Shown in pieces: positions 37,088-59,715 of a stretch of DNA of 64,000 bases. Origin of the DNA: Candidatus Marinarcus aquaticus. Its GTDB lineage: Bacteria > Campylobacterota > Campylobacteria > Campylobacterales > Arcobacteraceae. The notes below the pieces were generated by a model, which saw only the letters and a list, made by a program, of their open reading frames with translations, was not told the origin of the DNA and did not search any database. The translations under genes were made by a program, and so were the position numbers. The stretch spans positions 124,001 through 188,000 of the forward strand of contig NZ_PDKN01000002.1 of the NCBI RefSeq assembly GCF_004116335.1, written 5' to 3'. The stretch's first letter is position 1; each line of letters opens with the position of its first letter.

Positions 37088-37162
37088 TGGATGGGATAGC
37101 AGGATTCGAACCTGCGAATGACGGTACCAAAAACCGTTGCCTTACCACTTGGCGATACCCCA
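37088..37162 (-). tRNA. tRNA-Gln (TTG), copy 1
   Basis: A 75-base tRNA, anticodon loop TTTTGGT, acceptor TGGGGTA/TATCCCA, CCA encoded. Identical in sequence to the copy at 38580-38654. First gene of its cluster. Confidence 0.95.
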
Positions 37163-38579: not shown

Positions 38580-38654
38580 TGGATGGGATAGCAGGATTCG
38601 AACCTGCGAATGACGGTACCAAAAACCGTTGCCTTACCACTTGGCGATACCCCA
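38580..38654 (-). tRNA. tRNA-Gln (TTG), copy 2
   Basis: A 75-base tRNA identical to copy 1 at 37088. First gene of the second cluster, about 18 bases below a consensus promoter. Confidence 0.95.
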
Positions 38655-53616: not shown

Positions 53617-54189
53617 ATGAAAAAAACTTTTTTTCTTTTTACTTTGGTTATCTCATTTATATTTACAGGTTGCACTGAACATTTAGCAACACGATATTTT
53701 GACAAAAGTTCCCTTTATTCAAGTGCATTACAATACACAAAAAAAGCCGATATTGTGTATGAAGATGAAGTAAAAGTTATGATGAATGTAACGTATTTGA
53801 ACGCTGTCAATAAGATGTGGGACGATGAGTTTGAAAATTTTATCATTGGTATTTACATTGTTGATAATACGAAACAAGAGATTGATAACTCTTTAGAAGA
53901 TTTAAGTTTTTTCTTGTCTTTAAATGGTCGTAACTATGTCTCTCTTGAAAAGTTGACACCTGAACATGTGATGTATAATAACCTTCCATTGATGAATCAA
54001 TGGGCGAGTTATTATGTGGTGAAGTTTGACCAAGATGAAAACGATAAAGGAACACTCAAAGCCAACTATTATGATACTTCTGATTTTAATAACTCTGAAG
54101 AAATTAAGTTTACCAATAACGATATCTTAACATTGAAGCTCAATCACACTACTTATGGTGAGACTTCTTTATCGTTTGAATTAAGGTAG
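53617..54189 (+). CDS. Lipoprotein of unknown function
   Basis: A 190-residue lipoprotein, lipobox FTGC (Cys19). The mature part is mostly beta-strand with no recognised domain. It is flanked by mobB and slt as in C. jejuni, where a lipoprotein gene also sits at this place. Its last 41 bases overlap the convergent slt. Confidence 0.8.
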   Translation: MKKTFFLFTLVISFIFTGCTEHLATRYFDKSSLYSSALQYTKKADIVYEDEVKVMMNVTYLNAVNKMWDDEFENFIIGIYIVDNTKQEIDNSLEDLSFFLSLNGRNYVSLEKLTPEHVMYNNLPLMNQWASYYVVKFDQDENDKGTLKANYYDTSDFNNSEEIKFTNNDILTLKLNHTTYGETSLSFELR

Positions 54190-55777
54190 AAAACACCGTT
54201 TTATTTTTGGGATTGAGATGGTTATAGTAGATAAAATAGTTTGCTAAAACTTTCTTCCCATATTTTCTGCTCTCATCAACTGGAACCAACTCCATGCTTA
54301 AATAAGGTTCATACTCTTTTTTGTCCAAATCAAAAATATCTGTTTTAAGCATTTGTTGTGTAAACCCAATACCTCCATTATAGGCATAGGCAATAAAAAG
54401 TGGGTGAGAGAGATGTTCTTCTAAATAGTTCAGATGTTCATTGGCGTATGTGATACTGATTTTAGGATTAAGTTGTGCGTAGATGTTGAACGATTCTTTG
54501 CTTTTTTGCGAGAGATGTTTGGCTAAAAAAGGCATGATTTGCATCACTCCCAGTGCATATGAAGGGGAAATGGCACTTGCTATTAAGTGGCTTTCCTGTT
54601 TGGCTAATGCATAAATAAGCGCTTTGCGTTGAGTGGATTGTTCTTTTAAGAAGCTTTCATATGGCGTAATAAAATAGTGTTTCTGATACTTATTGTATTT
54701 TTCATAAATATAGGCCAAATTGGGTTTTGAATACTCTTGCGTAAAGAGATGTTCGTATTTTTTAATATCATAATTTGTTGTCAGTTCATTTTTTATTTTT
54801 TGCCATAAAAATGGATTGGTGACATCAAAACTGCTTTTTTCATCAAGTTGCTTAATATCATACTCTATATTTGTAAAGACTTCTTTGAATTGCTCTTTTG
54901 CAAAGAGGGTATAGATATTAATATCGTTGCTCTTATTGAGTGTTTCAAGATAGGATTTATCTTTGGTTGTTTGATAGAGCCAAAAATTGATTTTGTCTTT
55001 TTCAAATCGTAAATAATTCTTTTGTGATGCCGCTTTAAAATAATTGATTGCCAATTCATTGTGGTTGTGTCTTAACGCATTGATGCCCAAATAAAAGAGT
55101 GAATCGGAGGTTAATATATCTGCTTTAAACTCTTTTAAAAGTGATGTTTGCAAATTGGATAACTCAAGGTTGGTTACTATAATTTTAATGGTTTGATTAA
55201 ATTTTGTATCTATTTGCAACTGTTCAAGTCTGTTTTTAGGAAGTTTATAGTTAAAATAGTGTTTTATATAGGCTGCACCCACTTGATTAAAAACATCGAA
55301 AAAGCCTTCATTGTGGCTTGCAATGAGTTTTGTAAAAGGAAGTGGAGAATTTAAAATTAACAGTGTGGCGGCTTTTTGGGGATATTTTTCTTTTAATTTT
55401 TCATAGAGCTCTTTTTTTTGTATGTAAGTCAAAGTAGTCATTTCATAGGTCGACAGACCAGCAGCAATACAATCGGCATTCGTTTGAATGAGTTCTTTTG
55501 TGGACGCTTGTAGACACTGTACTACAGCATAAGTCTCGTCATGTTGCAATTTTTTTGCATAAGCAAAGAAAAGCTTATAGTTCATGTTATGAATCAACTC
55601 TAATGCTTCAATGGCTTGTGTAGGAGTGATTTCTTGGTTGAGAAACTGTAAGATATAAAAATCTCTGGCAAATGATTTGGGTTGCTCTTGAAGCCAAGCC
55701 AGATTGATTTGTGAACTGTAAAGGTTTGAAAGCAAAAGTGTAAGCATGAAAAGCTTACTAAGCAGAGAACTTTTCAT
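54149..55777 (-). CDS. slt: Soluble lytic transglycosylase Slt
   Basis: A 542-residue periplasmic enzyme: signal peptide (to about 22), a long alpha-helical ring domain, then an SLT domain with catalytic Glu in AKQESH and ALGVMQIMP, AYNGG. ATG 55777 gives a proper signal peptide; the frame is open to 55810 but would add charged residues inside yggT. Cuts glycan strands exolytically. Confidence 0.92.
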   Translation of the reverse strand: MKSSLLSKLFMLTLLLSNLYSSQINLAWLQEQPKSFARDFYILQFLNQEITPTQAIEALELIHNMNYKLFFAYAKKLQHDETYAVVQCLQASTKELIQTNADCIAAGLSTYEMTTLTYIQKKELYEKLKEKYPQKAATLLILNSPLPFTKLIASHNEGFFDVFNQVGAAYIKHYFNYKLPKNRLEQLQIDTKFNQTIKIIVTNLELSNLQTSLLKEFKADILTSDSLFYLGINALRHNHNELAINYFKAASQKNYLRFEKDKINFWLYQTTKDKSYLETLNKSNDINIYTLFAKEQFKEVFTNIEYDIKQLDEKSSFDVTNPFLWQKIKNELTTNYDIKKYEHLFTQEYSKPNLAYIYEKYNKYQKHYFITPYESFLKEQSTQRKALIYALAKQESHLIASAISPSYALGVMQIMPFLAKHLSQKSKESFNIYAQLNPKISITYANEHLNYLEEHLSHPLFIAYAYNGGIGFTQQMLKTDIFDLDKKEYEPYLSMELVPVDESRKYGKKVLANYFIYYNHLNPKNKTVFSTLIQTIKKSHHK

Positions 55778-55793
55778 CTTACACTCTTTATAT

Positions 55794-56075
55794 TTAAAGC
55801 ATACCAGCAAAAATTCTGGCTAAAAAGGTCTCTAAAAATATAAGAATAAAGATAATAATCAGTGGTGCTAAATCAATACCACCGACCACTGTTGGAATAA
55901 ATCGTCGAACCAGTGCATAGGCAGGTTGTGTTAATCGATCTAACATCTGTACAATTGGATTATATGGATCTGGTCTGACCCAACTTAATATGGCTGAGAT
56001 AATAATAACCCAGTAATAGAGTTTTATTATCCCCAGAACAACGACAGCAACTGAGCTTATAAGTGCATCAATCAT
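55794..56075 (-). CDS. YggT family membrane protein
   Basis: A 93-residue protein with two helices and the YggT motif (ILSWVRPDPYNPIVQMLDRLT). The family is linked to cell division and osmotic or membrane stability. Between gltX-like (4-base overlap) and slt, the conserved order in Campylobacter. Confidence 0.88.
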   Translation of the reverse strand: MIDALISSVAVVVLGIIKLYYWVIIISAILSWVRPDPYNPIVQMLDRLTQPAYALVRRFIPTVVGGIDLAPLIIIFILIFLETFLARIFAGML

Positions 56076-57349
56076 TTTACAATTTCTCCTAAATAGTTTT
56101 TAATAAAAGGATAGACTTCATCAAGTGAAGGTCCTGATTCATTTCCTGTTAATATATAGCAAAGTGACGCTGTTGAATCATTAAGGTCAAATTGAGTCTC
56201 TTGTTTTAAATAGTTTAAAAGGGCATCAAAGTTCTCAAAGTAGGGTGCTTTTTCAAGTGCCTCTTTTAAAACAGGAAACTCGTCTTTAAATTTTTTAATT
56301 GGTTTTTTAGGTGCAAATATGGCATCCATTTTCGCCTTGATTTCTTTAATTGTAGAGCAATTATTTAAATAGAGTTTTGAAAGTTTTCCTATATCTTCAT
56401 CGGCAAAACCAATGATTTTGGACAGACGCATATTTCCCATAGTTTCAATATGTTGTTTATTGATCTCTTTTAATTTGTTTATATCAAATGTGAGATTCTC
56501 TTTGGATAAAGAATTAATATCAAACCATTCAAGAGCTTCTTCCAGTGTAAAAATCTCTTTAGGTGCATTGCTCCCTAACAGCACAAGATAGTTTGCAATG
56601 GCTGCAGGTAAAAAACCTTCATCGATTAAGTATTTGACACTGTTGGCTTCTTTTATATCACAACTAATGTCCGCGCAGTGTGTATAAGCAATCACTTTAT
56701 TGTACCCTAATGCTTTTTGAATATGAATCTGTCGAGTTGTGTTCAGCAGGTGCTTTGAAGAGCGAATAATGGTTGAAATATCATAAAGCATATCATCAAC
56801 GGCACAAGCATAATTATATGTCGGTGTTTTATCATGTTTCAAAATAATAAAGGCATCTATTTCATCAGGTGTATGGTTTACACTCCCTTGAAGCGAGTCT
56901 GAAAATTCAATATTTTCAGTTGGTTTTTGCATTCTGATTGTAAAAGGAGCATTGACATTTAAAACCGTTTCATCGCTTAGCGTTGCACAAAAACCATCAT
57001 ATGAGTAAAGTGTGTTCTTTTGTTGAGCTTCTTCTTTGAGTTCATCGAGTTTCTCTTGTGAACAAAAACATGAAAAAGCTTTTTTTTGCATCAAAAGTTG
57101 CATCGCCATTTTTTGATGATATTTTAAGTTCTCACTTTGAAAAATAACACGTGAATGACCAATTGAAAAAAGGGTAAGAAGTTCTTGTATCTCTTTTTCA
57201 CAGTTTTCAATGTTGAGCTCTTTATCTGTATCATCTATACGAAGAACCAACTCTTCTTTGTGTTGTTGAGCGACAATATAGTTTAAAAGAGCAATTCGAA
57301 GACTGTTGATACTTAATGGTTCAGTTGGACTTACGGCAAATCTAAACAC
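56072..57349 (-). CDS. Glutamyl-tRNA synthetase homologue without HIGH and KMSKS motifs
   Basis: A 425-residue protein, co-linear with bacterial GluRS from FRFAVSPT (2-9) through PTYNYACAVDDMLYDIS (about 176-192) to the helical anticodon region. The HIGH motif (normally LHIG) reads LSINS (12-16), the RGxDHLxNT segment reads RSSKHLLNT, and KLSKR reads SCDIKEANS (229-237). These residues bind ATP and are needed for adenylate formation, so ordinary aminoacylation is doubtful. It sits where C. jejuni has gltX1. A second GluRS is expected elsewhere. The reading frame is intact. Confidence 0.85.
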   Translation of the reverse strand: MFRFAVSPTEPLSINSLRIALLNYIVAQQHKEELVLRIDDTDKELNIENCEKEIQELLTLFSIGHSRVIFQSENLKYHQKMAMQLLMQKKAFSCFCSQEKLDELKEEAQQKNTLYSYDGFCATLSDETVLNVNAPFTIRMQKPTENIEFSDSLQGSVNHTPDEIDAFIILKHDKTPTYNYACAVDDMLYDISTIIRSSKHLLNTTRQIHIQKALGYNKVIAYTHCADISCDIKEANSVKYLIDEGFLPAAIANYLVLLGSNAPKEIFTLEEALEWFDINSLSKENLTFDINKLKEINKQHIETMGNMRLSKIIGFADEDIGKLSKLYLNNCSTIKEIKAKMDAIFAPKKPIKKFKDEFPVLKEALEKAPYFENFDALLNYLKQETQFDLNDSTASLCYILTGNESGPSLDEVYPFIKNYLGEIVK

Positions 57350-57350
57350 A

Positions 57351-58655
57351 CTACTTCCTTACAATCGAAAATGAGAGTTGTTCGATTTCTTGGTGTGATT
57401 TGATGAAGTTATTGAGTTCTTCAAGCTCCACTTTTTCGATTTTTTTAAGTTCAAGTTCAGCAAAGTTTGCACCCAAACCTCTATAATAGTAGGTAAATGC
57501 ACGGTTCAGTCTTTGACTGAGTGTTTCAGTTCTTAATGGTTCGCTTCCAAGCAAGAATTTTTTTGCACTATCTAACTCTTTTTGTGTCACTCCCTTTTTC
57601 ACAAACTCATTGACCAACTCTTGTACGAGTTCTTGAGCCTCTTTTGCACTCTCTAGTTTGGTTTGTAAATAACCAGTAAAGTAGGTGTGTGATTTATTCA
57701 CTGAGATATACCCATATGCACTATAAGCTAAACCACGTTTCACACGAATCTCCTCCATAAGACGGCTACCAAAACCACTTCCACCTAGGATAAATGAAGC
57801 CACTTTTGCTAAATAGGTGTGTTGGTCTTGTGAGGTCATAAAGAATGGACTGGCAAAATAGATATAGGCTTGTTCTGTCTCTTTGATCTCCTCTTTAACT
57901 TGAGCTTTGCTTGTGATTGAAATGGTTTCAAGTTCCTCATTTTTTCCTTTTGGAAGATTTGTAAGAAGTTTTTTGATTTGTTTTTCTAACTCTTCAAACG
58001 TAATCTCACCGCCTGCAACGACAATTAAGTTATTTAACGTCAATGCATTATCTAAAAAAGCTTTGATATCTTTGACTTTAATATTTGCAATAGACTCAAT
58101 GGTTCCACTTGAAGGGTTTTCAAGAGCTGTATCTTTAAAAATAAGCTTTTTGAGGTTATTTTTTGCAACATAATCGTAGTCATTCTCTTTACGTTTCAAA
58201 ACACCCATTTGTGTTGTTTTAATTTTATCAAGAACGTTTTTATCATAATTAGGTGAAGCCAACAAATCTTTTAAAAGTTTTAAGCCTGTTGTATATTCAC
58301 TTTTTAAGCTCGCTAATTCAATCACAAAGGTTTCAAACCCATTGGATGCACTTAAAGAAATTGCACGGTTTTCAAGCTTTTGGGCAAACTTTACGCTTCC
58401 TAGCTCTTTTGTTCCTTCGTTTAAAAGTTTTGCACTGATATTGGCAAGTCCTGGTTTTGTTTTATCTTGTATATAACCTGAGTTTTTAAATACAAGTTGC
58501 ATATTAAATGTCGGCAGTGAGTTCTCTTGCTCAAAAATAACGGGTATTTCAACACCACTTATTGTAACATGCTTAATTGTAGCACTCATTAAAAATCCTT
58601 GTGTACATAGTGTAATGAATAAAAGATTAAAAAGTAAGCGTGATAGCTTAGTCAT
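57351..58655 (-). CDS. M16 peptidase-like protein without HXXEH
   Basis: A 434-residue secreted protein with the two M16 domains (about 30-215 and 220-434; SGGSGFGSRLMEEIRVKRGLAYSAYGY in family style). The zinc motif HXXEH after PGLA is replaced by NISAK, so it is non-catalytic, like subunit-type M16 proteins (YmxG/PqqL partners). One base from the gltX-like gene and 2 from mqnC. Confidence 0.88.
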   Translation of the reverse strand: MTKLSRLLFNLLFITLCTQGFLMSATIKHVTISGVEIPVIFEQENSLPTFNMQLVFKNSGYIQDKTKPGLANISAKLLNEGTKELGSVKFAQKLENRAISLSASNGFETFVIELASLKSEYTTGLKLLKDLLASPNYDKNVLDKIKTTQMGVLKRKENDYDYVAKNNLKKLIFKDTALENPSSGTIESIANIKVKDIKAFLDNALTLNNLIVVAGGEITFEELEKQIKKLLTNLPKGKNEELETISITSKAQVKEEIKETEQAYIYFASPFFMTSQDQHTYLAKVASFILGGSGFGSRLMEEIRVKRGLAYSAYGYISVNKSHTYFTGYLQTKLESAKEAQELVQELVNEFVKKGVTQKELDSAKKFLLGSEPLRTETLSQRLNRAFTYYYRGLGANFAELELKKIEKVELEELNNFIKSHQEIEQLSFSIVRK

Positions 58656-58656
58656 T

Positions 58657-59715
58657 TTAAAACCTTTCTAGTATTTCGTAGGCAGTATTTCGTTTAGCAG
58701 GGTTTTCCCCCACATCTTTGATGAGTTGTATCATTTCATCTTGATTCATGCAGTTTGTAGCTCCTGCAGCAGCTACTACATTCTCTTCCATCATGGTACT
58801 TCCTAAGTCATTGGCACCAAATTTAAGAGCCATTTGACCAATATAACTTCCTTGAGTAACCCATGAACTTTGAATATTTTTAAAATTGTCTAAAAAGAGT
58901 CGTGCAACGGCAAGCAGTCTGAGATATCGATTTGAAGATTGTGGTTTTAAATCGGGTATTTCTTGAAGCAGTTTGGTGTTGGCACTTTGAAATGACCACA
59001 TGATAAAGGCTCTAAAACCACCCGTTCTGTCTTGAAGTTCTCTGATTTTATCCCAATGTTCAATGATCTCTTCATCGGTTTCAACGGTACCAAACATCAT
59101 GGTTGCAGTTGTTTTCATATCAATTTTGTGAGCAGCTTCATGGACATCCAACCACTTTTGAGCATCCAGTTTTTTAGGTGCGACAATATCTCGTACTCGA
59201 TCACTTAATATTTCAGCTCCAGCTCCAGGAATAGAACTTAACCCTTTTGCTTGAAGTCGTGTCAAAACTTCATTATAAGTAAGTTTAGAAACCTTTGCAA
59301 TATAATCAATCTCAATAGCTGAAAAAGAGTGCAGTGTGATTTGTGGAAAATTTGTATGAATGTGTTCAACTAAATCTTCATAAAAATCAATTTTTAATTT
59401 AGGGTGAACACCCCCTTGCATTAAAATTTGAGTTCCACCAATGGCTAAAAGCTCTTCAATTTTTTGATCAATTTCTTCATAGGATAAAATATAGGCATCA
59501 TCGTCTCGTCCATGTCTGTAAAAAGCGCAGAATTTACAATCTACAAAACAGACATTGGTATAGTTTATGTTTCTATCAACCACAAAAGTAGTGGTTTTAG
59601 TAGGATGCAGTTGAAGTTTTTTTTCAAATGCCAACTCTCCCAGTTCTAAAAGAGGCATATTTTGAATTAAATCAAGTGCCTCCTCTTTCGTCAATCTCTT
59701 CTCTAAATCAATCAT
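58657..59715 (-). CDS. mqnC: Cyclic dehypoxanthinyl futalosine synthase
   Basis: A 352-residue radical-SAM enzyme of the futalosine menaquinone pathway. The cluster motif CxxxCxFC is CFVDCKFCAF (about residues 56-65), followed by YRHGRDDDAYILS and GGVHPKL; the C-terminal Met/Glu-rich region fits MqnC rather than MqnE. Its ATG overlaps the bamA stop by 1 base. Confidence 0.94.
   Translation of the reverse strand: MIDLEKRLTKEEALDLIQNMPLLELGELAFEKKLQLHPTKTTTFVVDRNINYTNVCFVDCKFCAFYRHGRDDDAYILSYEEIDQKIEELLAIGGTQILMQGGVHPKLKIDFYEDLVEHIHTNFPQITLHSFSAIEIDYIAKVSKLTYNEVLTRLQAKGLSSIPGAGAEILSDRVRDIVAPKKLDAQKWLDVHEAAHKIDMKTTATMMFGTVETDEEIIEHWDKIRELQDRTGGFRAFIMWSFQSANTKLLQEIPDLKPQSSNRYLRLLAVARLFLDNFKNIQSSWVTQGSYIGQMALKFGANDLGSTMMEENVVAAAGATNCMNQDEMIQLIKDVGENPAKRNTAYEILERF

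What the first reader, a model, noticed from the sequence alone, without database searches (positions are those of the whole stretch)
56072..57349. Full-length GluRS homologue that lost both class I signature motifs
The HIGH region reads LSINS, the RGxDHL segment reads RSSKHL and KLSKR reads SCDIKEANS, while the frame is intact over 425 residues and stays in the conserved yggT-gltX position. An essential enzyme would not lose these, so this copy probably has another role (tRNA or amino-acid binding, regulation, partner of a second GluRS).
Basis: partly seen in the sequence, partly recalled or inferred. Interest (0 to 1): 0.65.

Follow-up and report, generated by a model that had tools for sequence, protein, structure and literature searches.

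The report
Dead GluRS2 kept after GlnRS takeover
This gene was once a tRNA-charging enzyme (GluRS2, which loads glutamate onto tRNA-Gln); it has lost its chemistry in a genome that also carries a direct glutamine enzyme (GlnRS), the same happened many times in related bacteria, and yet selection still preserves the dead protein, so it probably has a second, non-catalytic job.

Summary
The 425-aa minus-strand ORF at 56072-57349 is an intact GluRS homologue: it passes NCBIfam gltX and AlphaFold gives a full GluRS fold. Its HIGH reads SINS, RGEDH reads RSSKH, and the KMSKR loop is shortened and replaced.

It is the orthologue of Campylobacterota GluRS2, the tRNA-Gln-specific misacylating enzyme. 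The genome also has an intact GluRS1 and a GlnRS.

I compared 216 orthologues. 65 of 66 genomes without GlnRS have an intact GluRS2; 138 of 150 with GlnRS have one with degraded motifs (11 phylogenetically independent pairs for, 0 against; p about 0.001). So GlnRS most likely took over and GluRS2 lost catalysis repeatedly. The one published comment I found (PMC3927822) guessed the reverse, that the GlnRS is non-functional.

The dead copies are not plain junk. They remain open frames, and pairs sharing an inherited lesion have dN/dS about 0.18 (intact pairs 0.096). Constraint is best kept in the zinc-bearing CP domain and the first helical domain; ATP and anticodon sites relax. GatCAB is kept almost everywhere, presumably for tRNA-Asn.

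Best reading: a pseudo-synthetase kept for protein binding. The partner is unproven; GatCAB is my best guess.

The parts
56072..57349 (-). gltX2: full-length GluRS2 homologue without class I signature motifs (425 aa, GTG start)
57302..57316 (-). HIGH-site replacement, residues 12-16 LSINS (intact orthologues MHIGN)
   Evidence: H13 and G15 invariant in 65/65 intact GlnRS-minus copies
56747..56764 (-). RGEDHx-site replacement, residues 196-201 RSSKHL
56639..56665 (-). KMSKS-loop remnant, residues 229-237 SCDIKEANS; eight residues shorter than in intact copies
56987..57070 (-). Retained zinc motif CxCx20Yx3C in the CP domain (C94, C96, Y117, C121)
   Evidence: motif definition in PMC4381286
55794..56075 (-). 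yggT, start codon overlapping the gltX2 stop (ATGA)
54149..55810 (-). slt, lytic transglycosylase-like, downstream of yggT (ORF as listed; true start may be further in)
   Evidence: name by similarity and from memory
57351..58655 (-). M16-type peptidase gene immediately upstream of gltX2
   Evidence: name from memory
58657..59715 (-). mqnC-like radical SAM gene upstream
   Evidence: name from memory
37088..37162 (-). tRNA-Gln(UUG), copy 1; U1-A72 pair and U73
38580..38654 (-). tRNA-Gln(UUG), copy 2, identical to copy 1

Best explanation
SHOWN: the gene is the Campylobacterota GluRS2 orthologue; it lacks the ATP-site motifs HIGH and KMSKS; across the order this loss goes with presence of GlnRS and arose many times; the dead proteins are under purifying selection. 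INFERRED, step 1: a GlnRS acquired by horizontal transfer charges tRNA-Gln directly, so GluRS2 no longer has to make Glu-tRNA-Gln and loses catalysis, KMSKS loop first, HIGH afterwards. INFERRED, step 2: the folded protein is kept because GluRS2 has a second role that needs neither ATP nor, probably, tRNA: a protein-binding pseudo-synthetase working through its zinc-bearing CP domain and first helical domain (domain 4). Most likely partner (about 0.35): GatCAB, which these genomes keep although AsnRS is absent, and which touches GluRS through this zinc domain in the T. maritima transamidosome. The confidence given is for steps 1 and 2 together, without the partner.
For: GlnRS-minus 65 intact / 1 degraded, GlnRS-plus 138 degraded / 12 intact. 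Independent pairs 11 for, 0 against, 2 ties, p about 0.001. Eight genera hold both states, all in the same direction. Intact GluRS1 and GlnRS in the own genome. Dead copies remain open frames; dN/dS in dead pairs with a shared inherited lesion: median 0.183, range 0.10-0.36, 18 pairs, against 0.096 in 16 intact pairs; codon models with omega fixed at 1 are 367-824 log units worse in five dead sets. Dead/intact omega ratio: domain 4 1.0, CP/zinc 1.6, Rossmann and SC 3-4, domain 5 3.6, KMSKS loop 6.5. Zinc cysteines kept in 96-97%. Full GluRS fold predicted, pLDDT 91. GatB over cutoff in 101/104 family genomes, AsnRS in 0/104. Zinc domain contacts GatCAB: PMC4381286.
Against: Relaxation is real (omega about twofold up), and the gene is absent from 16 of 109 GlnRS-plus genomes outside the family, so the second role is dispensable in some; 15 of those 16 keep GatB, which weakens the GatCAB idea. 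Eight of the GlnRS-minus genomes surveyed also lack GluRS2. Three f19 copies have lost domains 4 and 5, so domain 4 is not needed everywhere. Twelve GlnRS-plus genomes keep intact core motifs. GlnRS presence and motif loss are correlated; the order of events is inferred. No expression, binding or activity data.
Confidence: 0.68

Rival explanations
1. A slowly dying relic: GluRS2 became useless after GlnRS arrived and is drifting towards loss, with no function left.
For: Omega is about twice that of intact copies; the terminal domain 5 is strongly relaxed (omega 0.51); the gene is missing in 16 of 109 GlnRS-plus genomes; three copies are C-terminally truncated.
Against: Pairs whose ancestor was already dead still show omega 0.10-0.36, far below 1; omega = 1 is rejected by 367-824 log units; open frames kept across very many lineages; zinc cysteines kept in 96-97%, and Tyr to Cys at the fourth ligand in 13 copies of two families should keep a zinc site.
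Confidence: 0.12
2. A partner or regulator of GlnRS (or of its expression): glnS settled beside gltX2 and the dead protein assists or controls GlnRS.
For: glnS lies within 6 kb of gltX2 in 52 of 92 GlnRS-plus genomes of other families, divergent in f15 and f5, tandem in f19; in G121 the two frames overlap by 8 nt.
Against: gltX2 stays at its old place beside yggT-slt, so glnS moved there, perhaps by recombination at a conserved locus; in the window's genome and most of its family the two genes are far apart; no adjacency in f3, f6 or f9.
Confidence: 0.14
3. A glutamate or glutamine sensor, in the manner of HisZ: the amino-acid pocket is kept while ATP activation is lost.
For: R3 (equivalent of T. 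thermophilus R5) kept in 136/138, acidic residue at 39 in 95%, against H13 26% and KMSKS lysines 14% and 8%. The own copy keeps R3, Y178 and R196.
Against: Other pocket residues are not kept: Y178 52%, R196 66%; R3 may be structural.
Confidence: 0.12
4. Kept only as a translational lead-in for the overlapping yggT-slt genes, with no need for the protein itself.
For: Four-nt stop/start overlap with yggT in the window, yggT directly downstream in almost all loci.
Against: Lead-in function would protect the frame, not the amino acids; omega about 0.18 and invariant zinc cysteines say the protein sequence matters.
Confidence: 0.04
5. Still an active synthetase with unusual motifs, the GlnRS being the idle enzyme (extension of the guess in PMC3927822).
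For: Fold is complete; the paper considered the GlnRS of epsilon-proteobacteria possibly non-functional.
Against: His of HIGH and both KMSKS lysines, invariant in 65/65 intact copies, remain in 26%, 14% and 8% of degraded copies and are replaced by many residues or gaps; the KMSKS loop is the most relaxed region (6.5-fold); the own GlnRS has intact motifs.
Confidence: 0.03

Closest known systems
GluRS2 of Helicobacter pylori and other Campylobacterota (tRNA-Gln-specific misacylating GluRS)
   Same: Orthologous lineage by sequence and by yggT-slt neighbourhood in most families of the order; intact relatives carry the HIGN signature published for epsilon GluRS2.
   Different: The window copy and 138 GlnRS-plus relatives lack KMSKS, most also HIGH; positive charge and anticodon-domain residues decay.
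Inactive GluRS2 of Thermotoga maritima type (PMC3927822)
   Same: A second GluRS reported not to charge either tRNA.
   Different: That one arose by duplication of the catalytic domain and keeps its HIGH-type motif according to the paper; here motif loss is recurrent and coupled to GlnRS.
GluQ-RS (YadB)
   Same: GluRS paralogue with another role and the same CxCx(n)Yx3C zinc motif.
   Different: GluQ-RS is catalytically active and lacks the C-terminal domains; the window protein is full length and its GluQ-RS model scores are far below their cutoffs.
HisZ and other synthetase-derived regulatory pseudo-synthetases (from memory; reviewed in PMC9437257)
   Same: Synthetase fold without tRNA charging, apparently kept by selection for another role.
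   Different: HisZ is class II with a known partner; no partner is established here, and the loss is repeated in many lineages.

Membership tests
Bacterial glutamate--tRNA ligase (TIGR00464) | Whole-protein score over the curated cutoff | tested here: met
   318.8 against 289.95 bits
Bacterial glutamate--tRNA ligase (TIGR00464) | Class I signature motifs HIGH and KMSKS | tested here: not met
   SINS; KMSKR loop shortened and replaced. So not filed as an active ligase.
Bacterial glutamate--tRNA ligase (TIGR00464) | Charging activity | not testable with these tools
   needs an in vitro assay
Campylobacterota GluRS2 lineage | HIGN-type orthologue distinct from GluRS1 (HIGG) | tested here: met
   Intact orthologues read HIGN; the genome's other GluRS reads HIGG and is 37% identical; signature from PMC3927822
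Campylobacterota GluRS2 lineage | Conserved neighbourhood gltX2-yggT-slt | tested here: met
Selected pseudo-synthetase | Purifying selection after loss of the catalytic motifs | tested here: met
   omega 0.10-0.36 in pairs sharing an inherited lesion
Selected pseudo-synthetase | A defined non-catalytic function | not testable with these tools
   no binding or genetic data
GluQ-RS (YadB) | Model score over cutoff, catalytic domain only | tested here: not met
   134.8 against 256 and 134.5 against 276.7 bits; full-length protein with C-terminal domains
GatCAB-bound transamidosome component | Zinc domain used for the GatCAB contact is present | tested here: met
   CxCx20Yx3C present; use of this domain in T. 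maritima from PMC4381286
GatCAB-bound transamidosome component | Physical binding to GatCAB | not testable with these tools
   no complex prediction or binding assay; co-loss test uninformative because GatB is nearly universal

The most novel reading that the evidence does not exclude
Campylobacterota GluRS2 carries an old second function independent of aminoacylation (for example binding or gating GatCAB through its zinc domain). It would be present also in the active GluRS2 of Helicobacter and Campylobacter, and it shows only where GlnRS has repeatedly removed the first function while the protein stayed under selection.
Probability: 0.38. Interest if true: 0.8.

Novelty: new variant of a known kind. 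Interest (0 to 1): 0.64.

Why it matters
It is a natural experiment replicated many times: where a direct tRNA-Gln pathway is present, the enzyme of the indirect pathway turns into a selected pseudo-synthetase instead of simply disappearing. It points the other way from the published guess that epsilon-proteobacterial GlnRS is non-functional. It makes a hidden non-catalytic role of GluRS2 testable, and it warns that many annotated gltX genes in these genomes are probably not enzymes.

Tried and rejected
(1) Sequencing or MAG artefact: rejected, lesions at the same sites with different residues in 138 GlnRS-plus orthologues, including isolates (Poseidonibacter ostreae L004, Malaciobacter halophilus L006). 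(2) Loss of an indispensable GluRS: rejected, intact GluRS1 present. (3) Testing the GatCAB partner by co-loss: uninformative, GatB nearly universal and AsnRS absent. (4) A change of tRNA-Gln identity: not seen, U1-A72 and U73 in 30/30 genomes, 19 with and 11 without GlnRS. (5) tRNA chaperone: disfavoured by loss of positive charge and of anticodon-domain residues. (6) glnS adjacency as proof of a joint function: not accepted, because glnS moved to gltX2. (8) Literature: the open library gave one paper noting GluRS2 plus GlnRS in epsilon-proteobacteria (PMC3927822); I found no report of motif loss there, but I read only parts, and subscription papers and preprints were not covered. (10) Distant dN/dS pairs across families are saturated and were not used.

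Full report
OBSERVATION. The ORF is on the minus strand, window 57349 down to 56072, GTG start, 425 residues, no internal stop. It passes NCBIfam gltX_bact (318.8 against 289.95 bits) and matches Pfam tRNA-synt_1c. AlphaFold with 23 sequences gives pLDDT 91.3 and pTM 0.87, a full GluRS fold, TM 0.87 to T. thermophilus GluRS 1j09. The gene sits in a tight run mqnC-M16-gltX2-yggT-slt; the gltX2 stop overlaps the yggT start.

GENOME CONTEXT. The window is G000:C2:124001-188000 of a 2.53 Mb, 99.98% complete genome. That genome has a second, intact GluRS (HIGG, KLSKR; C3:142874-144028) and a GlnRS (701 bits, cutoff 425.8) with intact HIGH and MSKRK and a GatB-tail-like C-terminus (C8:119336-120901). 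GatB is present; no AsnRS passes its cutoff. The published signature is HxGN for epsilon-proteobacterial GluRS2 and HxGG for GluRS1 (PMC3927822). Intact orthologues of the window gene read HIGN and the genome's other GluRS reads HIGG, so the window gene is of the GluRS2 lineage, whose H. pylori member charges tRNA-Gln and not tRNA-Glu (PMC3927822).

PATTERN IN THE ORDER. I collected 216 orthologues, 99 from the window's family and 117 from other families. GlnRS presence came from TIGR00440. Without GlnRS: 65 intact, 1 degraded (G077, a 74% complete genome where GlnRS may simply be missing from the assembly). With GlnRS: 138 degraded, 12 intact. One of the 12, G045, has a GlnRS match with 15 internal stops. 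'Intact' means the core letters of HIGH and KMSKS; some of the 12, such as G279 and G383, already depart nearby. Of the 138, 120 lost both motifs and 18 only KMSKS; none lost only HIGH, which suggests that KMSKS goes first. Eight genera contain both GlnRS-minus intact and GlnRS-plus degraded members, and none shows the opposite. On a GluRS2 tree built without the motif columns, independent pairs give 11 for, 0 against, 2 ties (p about 0.001); 33 all-dead clades appear, an upper bound for independent losses since this is a gene tree. In 16 of 109 GlnRS-plus genomes outside the family no GluRS2 was found.

WHAT SELECTION KEEPS. The degraded copies are single open frames; three f19 copies end early and one is cut by a contig end. 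For pairs that share an inherited lesion, so that their ancestor was probably already dead, median dN/dS is 0.183 (0.10-0.36, 18 pairs); same-genus intact pairs give 0.096 (16 pairs). Motif columns evolve more slowly than the rest in intact copies (dN 0.019 against 0.047) and faster in dead ones (0.166 against 0.109). Codon models with omega fixed at 1 (and kappa fixed at 2) are 367-824 log units worse in five dead sets; fitted omega is 0.06-0.14 in dead and 0.02-0.05 in intact sets. The dead/intact omega ratio is 1.0 in helical domain 4, 1.6 in the CP/zinc domain, 3-4 in Rossmann, SC and terminal anticodon domains and 6.5 in the KMSKS loop. Zinc cysteines are kept in 96-97%; in 13 copies of two families the Tyr ligand became Cys, which should still bind zinc. 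Net charge is -14 to -16 in dead copies against -5 to -2 in intact ones, and anticodon-domain residues K386, K396, G397 and R405 decay. The dead protein therefore probably no longer binds tRNA as GluRS does.

MECHANISM. Shown: GlnRS presence and motif loss go together, and the dead protein is selected. Inferred: GlnRS took over tRNA-Gln charging; and the second role predates the losses, since the protein survived many separate ones. Inferred weakly: the partner is GatCAB. It persists in genomes without AsnRS; in the T. maritima transamidosome GluRS contacts GatCAB through the zinc domain, and GatB binding was proposed as the core role of that domain (PMC4381286); this domain is among the least relaxed here. 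Against it: 15 genomes keep GatB without GluRS2. GlnRS as partner is suggested by glnS lying within 6 kb of gltX2 in 52 of 92 genomes of other families, in both orientations (overlapping frames in G121; divergent in G278). But gltX2 stays beside yggT, so glnS moved there, and the window's genome lacks the adjacency. tRNA-Gln itself did not change: U1-A72 and U73 in all 30 genomes compared, 19 with and 11 without GlnRS. The switch is on the enzyme side.

COMPARISON. PMC3927822 noticed GlnRS beside GluRS2 in 6 of 10 epsilon-proteobacteria and suggested that the GlnRS may be non-functional; the present data point the other way. It also describes an inactive GluRS2 in T. maritima of different origin that keeps its HIGH-type motif. 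A 2022 review of duplicated synthetases lists only GluQ-RS for GluRS (PMC9437257). I found no report of the recurrent motif loss, within an open-access library only.

VERDICT. Observation confirmed, interpretation partly supported. A new variant of a known kind: a recurrent, selected pseudo-synthetase left where GlnRS is present. The role itself, and the partner, remain to be shown.

Noticed in passing
window 37088-37162 and 38580-38654: Two identical tRNA-Gln(UUG) genes lie in this same window, in a tRNA cluster.
   Followed up: partly
G000:C8:119336-120901 (locus L134) and other GlnRS-plus genomes: GlnRS carries a C-terminal extension that matches the tail of GatB (YqeY-like fusion), giving weak second gatB hits.
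   Followed up: no
L189 4289-6541 and 2998-4296 (G121); L187 (G278): glnS lies directly upstream of dead gltX2, tandem with overlapping frames or divergent, in three families of the order.
   Followed up: partly
G045:C171:7988-9214, G072:C290:7543-8937, G051:C10:40063-40902: GlnRS matches that are full of stops (G045, G072) or partial (G051); G045 and G051 have an intact GluRS2, as expected if GlnRS is broken or incomplete there.
   Followed up: no
G115, G118, G122, G131, G134, G144, G155, G156: Genomes with neither GlnRS nor a GluRS2 match but with GatB; their single GluRS may be non-discriminating.
   Followed up: no
G137:C1:1540348-1541636: GluRS2 of a GlnRS-minus genome appears split in two frames with in-frame TAG codons.
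   Followed up: no
zinc site of dead GluRS2 in f19 g38, f5 g68 and g75: In 13 dead copies the zinc-ligand Tyr (position 117) is replaced by Cys, giving a four-Cys site.
   Followed up: no
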